This document shows, piece by piece, positions 18,211 to 21,602 of a stretch of 64,000 nt of DNA (position 1 is the stretch's first letter; each line of letters begins with the position of its first letter). This stretch comes from Salibacteraceae bacterium (GTDB lineage Bacteria; Bacteroidota; Bacteroidia; Flavobacteriales_G; Salibacteraceae). The notes under the pieces are model-generated. The model did not search any database, had not been told where the DNA came from, and saw nothing but the letters and a program-made list of their open reading frames with translations. The DNA lies in contig JAGYJZ010000006.1 of NCBI GenBank assembly GCA_018401875.1, forward strand, positions 1-64,000, read 5' to 3'. Made by a program: the position numbers and the translations under genes.

Positions 18211-19170
18211 CATGTTCCTGACCTCGTCCGTGAAATGGATGTTCGCCTTAGTCTTGCTTCGCAATCCTAGTCTTTTTTCATATCAAAACGCTTGAGCAAG
18301 CTCAGTGGAGATTTAGTTGTGTTCAGCTTTGGTCAAACTCAATAATGTTCTTGAAGGTTTTAGCGAAGACTAACGATACAGGATTATTTCATGTTCCTGA
18401 CCTTGTCCGTGAAATGGATGTTCGCCTTTCCTTTGCTGCGCAAGTGAAGGCTTTTTTCATATCCAAACGCTTGAGCAAGCTCGGTGGAGATTTAGTTGTG
18501 TTCAGCTTTGGTCAAACTCAATAATGTTCTTGAAGGTTTTAGCGAAGACTAACGATACAGGATTATTTCATGTTCCTGACCTTGTCCGTGAAATGGATGT
18601 TCGCCTTTCCTTTGCTGCGCAAGTGAAGGCTTTTTTCATATCCAAACGCTTGAGCAAGCTCGGTGGAGATTTAGTTGTGTTCAGCTTTGGTCAAACTCAA
18701 TAATGTTCTTGAAGGTTTTAGCAATGACTAACGAAACAGGATTATTTCATGTTCCTGACCTCGTCCGTGAAATGGATTTTCGCCTTAGTCTTGCTTCGCA
18801 AGTGAAGTCTTTTTTCATATCCAAACGCTTGAGCAAGCTCGGTGGAGATTTAGTTGTGTTCAGCTTTGGTCAAACTCAATAATTTTATTAAAGGTTTTAG
18901 CGAAGACTAACGAAACAGGATTATTTCATGTTCCTGACCTCGTCCGTGAAATGGATTTTCGCCTTAGTCTTGCTGCGCAAGTGAAGACTTTTTTCATATC
19001 CAAACGCTTGAGCAAGCTCGGTGGAGATTTAGTTGTGTTCAGCTTTGGTCAAACTCAATAATTTTATTAGCTGAAGCGAAGACTAACGAAACAGGATTAT
19101 TTCATGTTCCTGACCTCGTCCGTGCAGTGGATATTCGCCTTTCCCTTGCTGCGCAAGTGAAGACTTTTTT
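18211..19170. repeat. tandem array, six copies of a ~179-bp unit
   Basis: The word CATGTTCCTGACC starts at 18211, 18390, 18569, 18748, 18927 and 19103, giving four exact 179-bp steps and one of 176 bp (a 3-bp deletion in copy five). Copies two and three are nearly identical, while copies four to six share variants (GATTTTCGCC), so the array grew by local duplication. Each unit carries GCTGCGCAAGTGAAG, then CTTTTTTCATATCCAAACGC and TTGAGCAAGCTC. No open reading frame crosses it. It fills the gap between the lipoprotein gene and tRNA-Arg, on the 3' side of that tRNA. Confidence 0.93.
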
Positions 19171-19216
19171 CATATCCAAACGCTTGAGCAAGCTCAGCGT
19201 TTGGATATGAAAAAAG
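19164..19216. repeat. 20-bp perfect inverted repeat ending the 179-bp array
   Basis: 19164-19183 (CTTTTTTCATATCCAAACGC) is the array-unit segment; 19197-19216 is its exact reverse complement, separated by TTGAGCAAGCTCA, which itself nearly continues the stem. T-run on the 5' side and A-run on the 3' side, so it is not a terminator by itself. Confidence 0.9.
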
Positions 19217-19241
19217 CCTGTTCAGCCAAGCTGAAAAGGCT
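19210..19241 (-). terminator. tRNA-Arg terminator
   Basis: Read on the minus strand: AGCCTTTTCAGC TTG GCTGAACAGGCT followed by TTTTT. One mismatch in a 12-bp stem, 13 nt past the tRNA 3' end. Its U-tract is the first part of the inverted copy of the array unit. Confidence 0.8.
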
Positions 19242-19253
19242 TCGATCATCAAG

Positions 19254-19327
19254 TGACCCAATCAGGATTCGAACCTGAGACCTACTGCTTAGAAGGCAGT
19301 TGCTCTATCCAGCTGAGCTATTGGGCC
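19254..19327 (-). tRNA. tRNA-Arg (anticodon TCT)
   Basis: 74 nt on the minus strand. Acceptor GGCCCAA/TTGGGTC, D-arm TAGCTCAGCTGGATAGAGCA, anticodon stem ACTGC/GCAGT with loop CTTCTAA, T-arm CAGGTTCGAATCCTG, discriminator A. CCA is not encoded. Confidence 0.95.
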
Positions 19328-19347
19328 AATAGTTCACTTGTATCAAT

Positions 19348-19370
19348 AAAAGCCCCAAAAATGGGGCTTT
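19348..19370 (-). terminator. hairpin between tRNA-Pro and tRNA-Arg
   Basis: AAAGCCCC-ATTTTT-GGGGCTTT on the minus strand, followed by TATT. It lies between the two tRNAs, so each is probably transcribed or processed separately. Confidence 0.7.
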
Positions 19371-19379
19371 CTATATTGG

Positions 19380-19453
19380 TCGGGGTGGCAGGATTCGAAC
19401 CTGCGACCTCCTGCTCCCAAAGCAGGCGCGATGCCGGGCTACGCTACACCCCG
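19380..19453 (-). tRNA. tRNA-Pro (anticodon TGG)
   Basis: 74 nt on the minus strand. Acceptor CGGGGTG/CACCCCG, anticodon stem CCTGC/GCAGG with loop TTTGGGA, T-arm GCAGGTTCGAATCCTGC, discriminator A. No encoded CCA. Confidence 0.95.
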
Positions 19454-19474
19454 ATGAAAAGAACTTTTAAGAAC

Positions 19475-19502
19475 AAAAAAGCCGTCCTTTCAAAAGGACG
19501 GC
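19475..19502 (-). terminator. terminator of the lipoprotein gene at 19537
   Basis: Minus strand: GCCGTCCTTTT GAAAGGACGGC then TTTTTT, a strong intrinsic terminator 35 bp past the stop. Confidence 0.85.
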
Positions 19503-19536
19503 AAATGTAATATTTCTTTAAATAAAAGAAGAAGAA

Positions 19537-20361
19537 TTAATAGAGGCTTCCTCTTATTTCTGAAACTGCTGCACCCAACTCTTCTACGTCACTGGTGCTG
19601 AACTTTTTAGCGTGCTTTGTAATCTTTGCTATTGGAGCACTGATGGTTTTTAATTGCTCAGCAATGGCTTTCATTTCAGCGTTGTCTTTGAAAACATCGC
19701 ACATGTGAAGCACATTTGTGTATGCATCGCACATGCTCCAAACACCCAGCCTTACGTCTGCGTTGCTTAAGTCGCTCTTAGACATTTGACATGCAATGTG
19801 CAAGCCTTCTAACCATCCACCAACTACCATAAACGTGGCGTATTGCGCTCTTTCGTCAGAGAAAAGCTGGTCTTTTGCCTTTAAGTAAGCCTTCGTAAGC
19901 AGCACTGATTTATTGATCGTTGTATCTTCAGAAGCCATTTTTTCGATCAATTCTTGATCAAACGCTTCAGCAATGCCCAAGCTGCCCGCTGTTTTCATCA
20001 ATCCTTCCATGCGCGACATGGCACTTTGGTTTTGTCCGAAGGCGGCACAATAAACCATATCGCTTCCAATAGCGCCAATACCCAATGCTTGTTTTGACGA
20101 ACCACTAAAACTTTTACCTGCTGATAACATTGCTGACTCAGAAAAAGAGTAGCCATTCTTGTTCATCGTTTCATACAGTTTGGCTGTAACTTCAATGTTG
20201 GTCTTGATGATACCGAGCTCAGCAAGGTAGCCGTCAGGAAGAGACTCAGCCCTTTCAAAGTTGTATTTTGGTCCAGTTGGAGCCTCTTCGCCACCGCAAG
20301 AGGAAAGTAAGGTTATGGCAGAAAACGAAATTGCCGAAAGGAATAGGTAGGTTCTTTTCAT
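19537..20361 (-). CDS. secreted lipoprotein of unknown function
   Basis: 274 aa from the ATG at 20361, chosen because the signal peptide then begins MKRTYLFLSAIS and ends at lipobox LLSSCGG. The longer frame to 20403 puts 14 extra residues before it. The mature protein is helical, with regular Ala/Ser/Leu spacing and a few Cys. No family recognised. Monocistronic, with a strong terminator, lying upstream of the tRNA pair on the same strand. Confidence 0.78.
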   Translation of the reverse strand: MKRTYLFLSAISFSAITLLSSCGGEEAPTGPKYNFERAESLPDGYLAELGIIKTNIEVTAKLYETMNKNGYSFSESAMLSAGKSFSGSSKQALGIGAIGSDMVYCAAFGQNQSAMSRMEGLMKTAGSLGIAEAFDQELIEKMASEDTTINKSVLLTKAYLKAKDQLFSDERAQYATFMVVGGWLEGLHIACQMSKSDLSNADVRLGVWSMCDAYTNVLHMCDVFKDNAEMKAIAEQLKTISAPIAKITKHAKKFSTSDVEELGAAVSEIRGSLY

Positions 20362-20601
20362 TTTATTGAGAATCAATTTAATCGCAAAACTAATCTGCTT
20401 CACAAAACTGGCAAGTATTACTTATTAAGCTTATGAAATTTTCATGTGAATAAACTCATTTAGACTAACATCAGACGATCACTTATATGCTTGTACCAAT
20501 GGGAGGGAAGAACGTTATTGCACTTTAGATGCAGTAATAAGATTAGTTTTTGAACGAGGATAGTCGGGATTTGAAAAATTGCAGCATTTTTGAATCCATT
20601 G

Positions 20602-21060
20602 ATGAAAAGTAGCAAAGAGATATTGAAGATTGTCGTTTTAGTCATAGGGATTGTGCTCCGTGTTTCTGCCTCAGTTATTGGACAGAATAACAATAATTTG
20701 AGTGTGGATTTTAAAGTGACAGGTCAAGAATCGAGTTTGATAAAGCGTGCTACTGTTACCGTATTTAATGAGACTGGTGAAGTAATTAATACGTTTAAAA
20801 GACCTAATTATAAAGGAAGCACGTATAGGATATTTATGGACTTTGATGAAATTAATTCGATCAAAGTGACTAAAAATGGGTTTGATTCTAAGACGTTACT
20901 TTTTAACACTAAGAATGTACCAGTTCAACATCAAGAGTGGGGCTTTGAGTATGGTGGGTTTTCTGTAGTTCTTATTCCAACCACTCATCCAGCATCGAAT
21001 GATACAGTAGGGAGGGTTTTCTATGACCCGGCCATTGAAAATTTTATTCATAATAAATGA
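20602..21060 (+). CDS. hypothetical secreted protein
   Basis: 152 aa from the ATG at 20602 (an in-frame TTG lies at 20590). N-terminal hydrophobic segment (ILKIVVLVIGIVLRVSASVIG) is a signal peptide or anchor. The rest is beta-rich with a carboxypeptidase-regulatory or Ig-like look (ATVTVFNETGEVINTFK ... IKVTKNGFDSKTLLF). Not recognised. Base composition is more AT-rich than neighbouring genes, and it lies between the two repeat arrays, so it may be a recent arrival (inference). Confidence 0.6.
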   Translation: MKSSKEILKIVVLVIGIVLRVSASVIGQNNNNLSVDFKVTGQESSLIKRATVTVFNETGEVINTFKRPNYKGSTYRIFMDFDEINSIKVTKNGFDSKTLLFNTKNVPVQHQEWGFEYGGFSVVLIPTTHPASNDTVGRVFYDPAIENFIHNK

Positions 21061-21207
21061 CAGAGTGATCGAAGTTTGTGGTTGTGAATGGTAAAATTCT
21101 ATCTAAAATGCAGTTGCATCTATTGCGCATCGTTTGAATTTTATATTAAGCCTTCAATTTCAAAGATAGGTTGGTACATATTGCCCTTCCAAGCTTAAGA
21201 ATTTTAT

Positions 21208-21556
21208 GATTACGCCCTTCGGTCGTGATTCCGCAGGGGGAGGTTCAGACCTGAAAATCCTTGTACTGCTTCGCATTGCTAGGTCTTTTTTATTCCATTG
21301 CCTGTCAGCTTATGAAGTCAAGGATTACTCCCTTTGGTCGTGATCCCGTTAGGGGGGAGGTTCAGACCCAAAAATCCTTGCACTGCTGCGCATTGCTAGG
21401 TCTTTTTTTATTCCATTGCCCTTTAGCTTATGAATTCGGGATTACTCCCTTCGGTCGTGATCCCGTTAGGGGTGAGGTTCAGACCTGAAAATCCTTGCAC
21501 TGCTTCGCATTGCTGGGTCTTTTTTATTCCATTGCCCTTCGAGCTTGCTCGGGGCA
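21208..21556. repeat. tandem array, three copies of a ~116-bp unit
   Basis: The word GATTAC at 21208, 21323 and 21440 gives steps of 115 and 117 bp. Each unit reads CCCTTCGGTCGTGAT, then GAGGTTCAGACC, ATCCTTGCACTGCTTCGCATTGCT, GGTCTTTTTTATTCCATTGCC. Apparent reading frames through it (for example 21261-21488) are repeat artefacts. Nothing else is recognised in 21061-21602. Like the first array it lies on the 3' side of a minus-strand tRNA. Confidence 0.9.
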
Positions 21557-21568
21557 TGGAATAAAAAA
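21520..21568. repeat. inverted repeat ending the 116-bp array
   Basis: TTTTTTATTCCAT (21520-21532), part of the array unit, is mirrored by ATGGAATAAAAAA (21556-21568). The inner bases GCCC/GGGC and CGAGC-TT-GCTCG extend the stem. Same T-outside polarity as the repeat at 19164. Confidence 0.88.
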
Positions 21569-21596
21569 ATCCCGTGCACTTCGTGCACAGGATTTT
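21563..21596 (-). terminator. tRNA-Ser terminator
   Basis: Minus strand: AATCCTGTGCAC GAA GTGCACGGGATT followed by TTTTTTT, 6 nt past the tRNA. The U-tract is also the start of the inverted copy of the array unit. Confidence 0.85.
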
Positions 21597-21602
21597 GGTC
21601 TG

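What the first reader, a model, noticed from the sequence alone, without database searches (positions are those of the whole stretch)
18211..21602. Two tRNA-linked tandem arrays with the same inverted-terminus design
Array A (six units of ~179 bp) and array B (three units of ~116 bp) differ in sequence, yet both lie directly 3' of a minus-strand tRNA (Arg, Ser). In both, the first bases after the tRNA terminator hairpin are an inverted copy of an array-unit segment: CTTTTTTCATATCCAAACGC with its exact mirror at 19197-19216, and TTTTTTATTCCAT with its mirror at 21556-21568. Thus the terminator's U-tract is itself part of the repeat. A shared word also links the units (GCTTCGCAATCCTAGTCTTTTTT in A, GCTTCGCATTGCTAGGTCTTTTTT in B). 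They look like members of one family of tRNA-tail repeats that grow in tandem.
Basis: seen in the sequence. Interest (0 to 1): 0.75.

Follow-up and report, generated by a model that had tools for sequence, protein, structure and literature searches.

The report
Cloverleaf-shaped tRNA tails in Bacteroidota
Right behind many tRNA genes in Bacteroidota bacteria sits an apparently undescribed folded element, often repeated in tandem, that ends in a modified copy of part of the tRNA's own tail; its fold is kept while its letters change, so it is probably selected, but what it does is unknown.

Summary
In the window, arrays A (18206-19195) and B (21208-21546) each start at a tRNA terminator whose T-run is one arm of a near-perfect hairpin. 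The same design follows 7 of 26 tRNAs of this genome (control: 1 of 378 other T-runs of the window) and tRNAs of many Bacteroidota. A GTDB scan for its most constant motif (80 of 115 stretches examined) found a same-sense tRNA upstream of 53 of 71 Bacteroidota matches (13 more cut by stretch ends) and of 1 of 25 others. The unit is P1 (trailer) - terminator P2 - T-run hairpin P3 - P4 - P1' - spacer - P5. P1-P4 can form a four-way junction starting at the tRNA 3' end; P5 is a T-arm copy with local T-stem and altered loop, in some units followed by a copy of the tRNA 3' end. P1 and P3 covary; loop polarity and G.U over A.C in P3 favour the tRNA-sense strand. No Rfam family matches at its threshold. 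Most likely a family of structured tRNA-tail elements that duplicate at tRNA ends, with the fold selected as RNA; function and mode of spread are inferred.

The parts
19253..19327 (-). tRNA-Arg (tct), host of array A
   Evidence: ARAGORN; Rfam tRNA
19238..19252 (-). P1 5' strand / trailer, first bases after the tRNA
19210..19243 (-). P2: tRNA terminator hairpin (19216-19243) plus T-run (19210-19215)
19165..19215 (-). P3: T-run-anchored hairpin, apex GAGCTTGCTC
19145..19164 (-). P4 hairpin
   Evidence: present in the centroid fold
19119..19141 (-). P1 3' strand (19130-19141; weak in this copy) and small hairpin (19119-19131)
19092..19113 (-). P5, T-arm mimic TCAGGAACATGAAATAATCCTG; same sequence at 18916-18937, 18737-18758, 18558-18579, 18379-18400
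18206..19195 (-). array A, 179-bp period, 5.5 copies
21602..21689 (-). tRNA-Ser (gct), host of array B
21563..21601 (-). trailer/P1 5' strand, P2 terminator and T-run
21520..21569 (-). P3 T-run-anchored hairpin
21495..21519 (-). P4 hairpin
21481..21494 (-). P1 3' strand closing the four-way junction (RNA fold of 21464-21601: z -7.9)
21439..21463 (-). P5 GGATCACGACCGAAGGGAGTAATCC; further copies 21322-21346 and 21208-21231 (degenerate)
21208..21546 (-). array B, 117-bp period, 2.9 copies

Best explanation
Both arrays belong to a family of structured tRNA-tail elements found in many Bacteroidota. SHOWN by sequence: the unit sits directly 3' of a tRNA. A complementary pair P1, starting at or near the tRNA 3' end, encloses the terminator hairpin P2, a long hairpin P3 whose base contains the terminator's T-run, and a hairpin P4. 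Then come a spacer and P5, a T-arm-like hairpin whose stem tends to follow the host tRNA and whose loop is altered in a recurrent way. In some copies a copy of the tRNA 3' end, and a second trailer and terminator, follow. P1 and P3 pairing is kept while sequence changes. INFERRED: copies arise by duplicative insertion or duplication at the tRNA 3' end and then amplify in tandem, often as right half-units. The fold works on the tRNA-sense strand, most likely as RNA: P2 ends most tRNA transcripts, and read-through RNA refolds into the closed four-way junction that buries trailer and U-run and leaves the tRNA free. The T-arm mimic is either a recognition site for the activity that spreads the element or a decoy for a tRNA-binding protein.
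For: tRNA linkage: 53 of 71 Bacteroidota matches vs 1 of 25 others have a same-sense tRNA within 800 nt upstream (80 of 115 stretches examined). Own genome: 6 of 6 motif matches lie 3' of tRNAs. Pairing: P1 complementarity with its own partner exceeds the 95th percentile of swapped partners in 53 of 73 units, P3 in 52 of 73. P1 in 7 chosen Arg elements, columns set after a helix scan of the same alignment: 92.9% paired, 9 of 14 pairs with double changes, slid controls at most 54.2% paired. Folds: 6 of 6 chosen units beat all 200 shuffles, z -4.4 to -8.3; window copies -6.6 and -7.9. Strand: sense-only vs antisense-only loops among 67 units: P3 apex 35 vs 3, P4 18 vs 4, P2 12 vs 2; G.U 32 vs A.C 12 in P3 outside the T-run, p=0.004. 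Duplication: a tRNA 3' end copy (8 or more of 10 nt) follows P5 in 14 of 67 units vs 0 of 3336 cross-type comparisons; T-stem 4-mer shared in 28 of 67 vs 336 of 3336. A stack with a different unit inside, each boundary a tRNA-Ser end (L309). P4 is not an inverted copy of the P2 loop (40 units), so a bare inverted duplication does not explain the unit.
Against: P2 plus T-run looks like a strong terminator, so little RNA may reach P3-P5. P1 shows no clear strand bias (G.U 12 vs A.C 8). C-to-T bias on a transcribed strand could mimic the G.U excess. In one search one of five measures (further pair types) was not above shuffles (124 of 500 reached it). P1 is weak in array A, whose minimum-energy fold is not the plain junction, and by eye only about 10 of 27 flanks folded show it. 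Presence varies between congeners, so no single copy is essential. No enzyme for spread was looked for beyond eight window proteins, and no clean empty site was seen in the G009/G010 comparison. The degenerate motif is noisy: in the genus 17 of 30 loci have a tRNA upstream, 6 are cut, 7 have none; at class level 5 of 30 have one. An ORF convergent with tRNA-Ser lies beyond array B (20590-21060 plus), as the insulator rival would want.
Confidence: 0.48

Rival explanations
1. Bidirectional terminator or insulator: P2 stops tRNA transcription, P4 with the A-run (a T-run on the other strand) stops antisense transcription towards the tRNA. P1 and P3 pair only because both terminators share stem and U-tract; arrays are serial antisense terminators.
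For: Read on the other strand, several P4 regions are hairpin-plus-T-run terminators (by eye). T-run positions of P3 pair almost always (344 matches, 7 mismatches). Beyond array B lies an ORF convergent with tRNA-Ser (20590-21060 plus; no Pfam hit).
Against: Loop polarity of P3 and P4 favours the sense strand. Beyond array A the next ORF (17764-18096 minus) runs the same way as the tRNA, so it sends no convergent transcript. P5 and the tRNA end copy stay unexplained.
Confidence: 0.24
2. Mutational by-product: template switching at terminator hairpins creates and keeps correcting palindromes, and slippage makes the tandem copies; no function.
For: Local sequence makes both arms; some aligned arms are perfect (for example L030 and L229). 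tRNA genes are plausible hot spots (recalled).
Against: P4 is not an inverted copy of the P2 loop. The spacer is not an inverted tRNA acceptor end (998 and 1000 of 1000 permutations scored at least as high; base composition may add to this), so the inverted part stops near the tRNA. Loop polarity is strand-specific. The P5 loop recurs in many taxa (motif-selected).
Confidence: 0.13
3. Scars or att sites of phages or integrative elements that use tRNA 3' ends as attB.
For: Copies of the tRNA 3' end about 150 nt downstream in a part of the units; stacked unlike units.
Against: Of 48 viral-contig matches of GGATCAYGNARTAATCC 1 has a tRNA within 800 nt upstream, and the bases beside the motif extend its stem by at most 3 of 5 pairs. 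27 of 53 tRNA-to-motif distances fall within 132-155 nt, too regular for deletion scars. No integrase among the 8 window proteins scanned; no wider integrase search was made.
Confidence: 0.07
4. Ordinary: two unrelated tandem repeats that happen to lie beside tRNAs.
For: Sequences of arrays A and B differ.
Against: Same anatomy at other tRNAs of the genome and in other Bacteroidota.
Confidence: 0.02

Closest known systems
rtT / tyrT tandem repeats of Escherichia coli (recalled: 178-bp repeats with the last 19 nt of tRNA-Tyr, rtT RNA)
   Same: Tandem units of similar length behind a tRNA, in part containing a copy of the tRNA 3' end.
   Different: Here many tRNA types, a covarying four-way junction and a T-arm mimic with an altered loop; no Rfam family reaches its threshold on the element. 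The E. coli locus was not fetched for comparison.
Intrinsic (bidirectional) terminators
   Same: Hairpin plus T-run at the tRNA end; mirrored A-run.
   Different: P1, P3 and P5 extend beyond a terminator; P5 resembles the tRNA T-arm.
REP/BIME-type palindromic repeats (recalled)
   Same: Short imperfect palindrome with a recurrent mismatch (P5), tandem clusters.
   Different: In the own genome all six motif matches lie behind tRNAs; the stem tends to follow the host tRNA.
Palindromic candidate structured RNAs of Bacteroidetes in PMC8040213 (passages seen)
   Same: Palindromic Bacteroidetes candidates, most of the palindromic set predicted there to contain terminators.
   Different: The passages seen place the named ones near TPR, ruvA, tonB or phage genes, not behind tRNAs; alignments were not compared, so overlap cannot be excluded.
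Retron msr-msd RNA (recalled)
   Same: Closing inverted repeat around short hairpins and one long hairpin.
   Different: No reverse transcriptase among the eight window proteins scanned; the element sits at a tRNA end.

Membership tests
rtT / tyrT-type tRNA-tail repeats | repeat unit contains the 3' end of the host tRNA | tested here: inconclusive
   met in 14 of 67 units; in the window the Arg copy is degenerate (5 of 16 mismatches) and for Ser no copy was found (7 of 16, chance level)
rtT / tyrT-type tRNA-tail repeats | match to the Rfam RtT model (that Rfam holds one is recalled) | tested here: not met
   cmscan of the window at gathering and of six loci at E up to 1 lists no RtT; weak sub-threshold hits to other families over the hairpins (such as mir-3012, 37.4 bits against 90) are taken as chance
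intrinsic terminator | GC-rich hairpin followed by a T-run | tested here: met
   19210-19243 and 21563-21601
intrinsic terminator | ends transcription | not testable with these tools
   no transcript data available
REP/RAYT elements | dispersed intergenic palindromes not tied to tRNAs | tested here: not met
   6 of 6 matches in the own genome and 5 of 6 in G003 lie behind tRNAs; over 30 genus loci 17 do, 6 are cut, 7 do not
REP/RAYT elements | cognate RAYT transposase in the genome | not tested
   no search made
retron ncRNA | adjacent reverse transcriptase gene | tested here: not met
   eight window proteins around the arrays scanned with Pfam, none an RT; other loci not scanned
phage/ICE attachment site | motif carried by viruses or beside an integrase | tested here: not met
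   viral contigs: 1 of 48 matches has a tRNA upstream, none looks like the element by eye; no integrase in the eight window proteins

The most novel reading that the evidence does not exclude
A new kind of miniature mobile cassette specialised on tRNA genes. The folded tRNA-sense strand of a unit of about 150 nt is inserted at the tRNA T-arm by an unknown trans-acting activity, restoring the tRNA and leaving a T-arm mimic (P5, loop ATCACGAAGTAAT in place of TTCGAAT). Different units then stack like cassettes behind one tRNA, as in L309.
Probability: 0.27. Interest if true: 0.9.

Novelty: new variant of a known kind. Interest (0 to 1): 0.75.

Why it matters
tRNA 3' ends are among the best studied places in bacterial genomes (processing, termination, integration of mobile DNA). 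Yet a structured tail behind 7 of 26 tRNAs of this genome, seen in many other Bacteroidota, reaches no Rfam threshold and turned up in none of the searches made here. If the fold is an RNA device it adds a layer to tRNA maturation or read-through control. If it is a mobile cassette it would be among the smallest known and aimed at tRNAs. Either way it helps annotation of tandem repeats and tRNA fragments beside tRNAs in Bacteroidota.

Tried and rejected
Whole-unit inverted duplication (template switch) as sole origin: P4 does not mirror the P2 loop (40 units) and the spacer does not mirror the tRNA acceptor end. A result the other way: spacer against rc(tRNA end plus 6 trailer bases) exceeded all 300 permutations; traces this to the trailer part, i.e. 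P1.

Viral att sites: negative. Integrase or RT neighbours: none among the eight proteins scanned. Home copy of the odd unit of L309 elsewhere in its genome: none. Covariance model: not built, because the MAFFT alignment of 16 units (A1) is not structure-true. SRP RNA of the window as another tailed RNA: no such tail by eye. Loci with an element but no tRNA by ARAGORN (L313, L321, L306, L314): no Rfam RNA at threshold; L314 shows a tRNA-Ser-like 3' end upstream, by eye. The class-level motif count (128 of 198 genomes) is not used as prevalence, since 5 of 30 loci checked lie behind a tRNA. P5 loop polarity (53 vs 0) is not used because many units were selected by that motif.

Literature: eight answered searches list no description of these elements that I could recognise from titles and abstracts. 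From two papers only passages were seen (PMC8040213; PMC2864571); all others as listings.
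Full report
OBSERVATION. The two arrays, their tRNAs and both inverted termini are as described. In 64 kb only three perfect inverted pairs of 13 nt or more with a gap up to 45 nt exist; two are these. The T-run mirror scores 30 or more in 7 of 26 tRNA flanks of this genome (21 of the 26 have a T-run of five or more in the first 90 nt; the other five cannot score) and at 1 of 378 other T-runs of the window.

OWN GENOME. The window lies in a 2.62-Mb, 36-contig assembly, 82% complete. 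Contig lengths suggest that two congeners are the Flavobacteriales MAGs L_MB288 (G003) and SI074_bin77 (G001) (inference). A tRNA-Ser (gga) on another contig carries a family-B element at 85% identity. Flanks of the 26 tRNAs found were read: the same design, with different sequences, stands at Arg-tct, Arg-acg, Ser-gct, Ser-gga, Ser-tga, Asp and His, and in part at Leu-gag. The degenerate P5 motif GGATCAYN{1,12}RTAATCC occurs six times in the genome, six of six behind tRNAs. Over 30 loci of 42 genus matches, 17 have a tRNA within 800 nt upstream, 6 are cut by a contig end, 7 have none.

THE UNIT. From the tRNA 3' end: P1 5' strand (the trailer); P2, a terminator hairpin; a T-run; P3, a long hairpin whose left arm is the T-run plus about 10-20 nt and whose right arm ends in an A-run; P4; P1 3' strand; a spacer, in this genus often with a small hairpin; P5. 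P1 could be aligned (score 18 or more) in 55 of 67 units; 35 of these 55 start within two bases of the annotated tRNA end, mean length 16 nt. By eye about 10 of 27 flanks folded show the four-way junction as minimum-energy fold; others fold differently. Of six chosen units folded with shuffles all six beat every shuffle, z -4.4 to -8.3; the window's Ser unit forms the junction (z -7.9), while the Arg unit is stable (z -6.6) but its P1 is weak.

P5. P5 reads like a T-arm whose loop TTCGAAT has become ATC-ACGAAGT-AAT: an A at the first loop position and a mini-hairpin in place of the fourth base, on the stem of the local tRNA (my reading). The last four bases of the T-stem 5' strand agree with the host tRNA in 28 of 67 units against 336 of 3336 cross-type comparisons; all five bases in 8 of 67 against 68 of 3336. 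Ten bases after P5 match the tRNA 3' end at 8 or more positions in 14 of 67 against 0 of 3336, so in most units the copied end has decayed or was never there. Clean cases: G004 Ser-gct (L128), G001 Ser-tga (L116), G003 Val-gac (L077), and G009 Arg-tct (L366), where the tRNA end is followed by a second near-identical trailer and terminator. His, Asp and G009 Pro-ggg carry variants of the same loop logic (by eye).

RANGE. The exact motif GGATCACGAAGTAATCC was scanned over GTDB contigs: 115 stretches, 80 listed. Of those 80, sorted by me from record titles, Bacteroidota hold 71 matches: 53 with a same-sense tRNA within 800 nt upstream, 13 cut by the stretch end, 5 without. Two of these five lie behind tRNA-like 3' fragments (L138, L179, by eye). 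The other group holds 25 matches: 1 with a tRNA, 21 without, 3 cut. Of the 53 distances 27 lie at 132-155 nt; the rest are 17, 61, 61 and 188-706 nt, many of them further units of arrays. Hosts include Arg, Pro, Ser, Val, Tyr, Lys, Met and Leu tRNAs, and Cys. Flank surveys of two more genomes: G148, 29 flanks (36 tRNAs known; 3 of the 29 tRNAs known beforehand from the motif), 2 at mirror score 28 or more and a third, Ser-tga, at 25; G134, 25 flanks (33 known; 2 beforehand), 6. Over all 134 flanks of genus and order held, 13 score 30 or more. Of 18 class-level stretches that I chose for array-like or canonical motifs, 14 have a tRNA upstream; of 30 unchosen class-level loci 5 do, so the degenerate motif is noisy outside the genus.

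COVARIATION AND STRAND. Units were collected by a tRNA with a P5-like motif 120-165 nt downstream: 73 units. Own-partner complementarity exceeds the 95th percentile of swapped partners in 53 of 73 for P1 and 52 of 73 for P3. In an alignment of seven chosen Arg elements, with P1 columns set after a helix scan of the same alignment, P1 is 92.9% paired, nine of fourteen pairs have double changes, slid versions are at most 54.2% paired; the count of further pair types is not above shuffles (124 of 500). After dropping near-duplicates (67 kept), P3 mismatches outside the T-run are 32 G.U and 12 A.C (p=0.004; 64 units aligned). P1 shows 12 and 8, no clear bias (70 kept). Loops, sense-only/antisense-only/both/neither: P3 apex G-YUYR-C 35/3/2/27; P4 18/4/5/40; P2 12/2/1/52. 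I read this as folding of the tRNA-sense strand, most simply RNA; single-stranded DNA cannot be excluded.

HOW COPIES ARISE. Presence varies between congeners: Ser-gct has the element in G000, G003, G004 and G009 but not in G010 or G001. The corresponding Arg-tct locus has a single unit and no tandem array in G009 and G010, against 5.5 copies here; in G009 it is followed by a protein resembling the window lipoprotein-like ORF 17764-18096 (by eye). His has two units in G000, G009 and G010 (by eye). In L309 (Ser-tga) two like units, a different unit and the start of a like one are stacked, each boundary being a tRNA-Ser 3' end; the odd unit has no other match in its genome. Elements at two isoacceptor genes of one genome can be nearly identical (Ser/Ser 0.93, Pro/Pro 0.88, Arg/Arg 0.87 and 0.86), but means are close: 0.64 (31 same-genome pairs), 0.68 (29 same-tRNA pairs between species), 0.60 (389 unrelated). 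So spread between isoacceptors or gene conversion is likely, and free movement between tRNA types is not shown. Many arrays consist of right half-units beginning near the P3 apex (by eye), as expected if unstable palindromes lose their left half (inference).

NEGATIVES. No Rfam family reaches its threshold on the element; below threshold there are scattered hairpin hits. Viral contigs do not appear to carry it. Of eight window proteins scanned, two form an ABC exporter, one is TerB-DnaJ, one an FKBP-type isomerase, four have no Pfam hit; no integrase or RT. Paper searches found no description; the held library is partial.

VERDICT. The family and its fold are well supported. Selection on the fold is likely. 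RNA as the working form and duplicative insertion as the origin are inferences. The function is open between a read-through/trailer device, an insulator, and a selfish tRNA-end cassette. On checking, the ORF convergent with tRNA-Ser beyond array B (20590-21060 plus) was weighed in: the insulator rival goes from 0.22 to 0.24 and the best explanation from 0.50 to 0.48.

Noticed in passing
L016/L020 (Val), L021 (Met), L034 and L094 (Leu), L130 (Leu): A second kind of tRNA-tail repeat with an exact or near-exact tRNA 3' end 66-110 nt downstream, several with a word like GAGAAGTTTATC; more like rtT.
   Followed up: partly
L073, L076, L091 (G003) and L365 (G010): Similar long sequence follows the terminators of different tRNAs (Met, Arg, Asn), as if one larger element had inserted at several tRNA ends (by eye).
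   Followed up: no
L371, L372, L367, L370: Leu-gag and Ser-gga tRNAs of G009 and G010 share another similar tail (AAACAAAGGGTTT...GCATACAAAG..ATGC), again shared between tRNA types (by eye).
   Followed up: no
L179 (Robertkochia), L138, L314: Elements stand behind tRNA-like 3' fragments without a complete tRNA found.
   Followed up: partly
L313, L321: Complete-looking elements without a tRNA or any Rfam RNA at threshold upstream in the stretch held.
   Followed up: partly
window 20872 (-): The only other T-run of the window with a mirror score of 30; it lies within the ORF 20590-21060.
   Followed up: no
L358 and L021 (tRNA-Met), L127 (tRNA-Pro): Short GC-rich palindromes sit inside partial tRNA-like copies next to the intact tRNA (by eye).
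   Followed up: no
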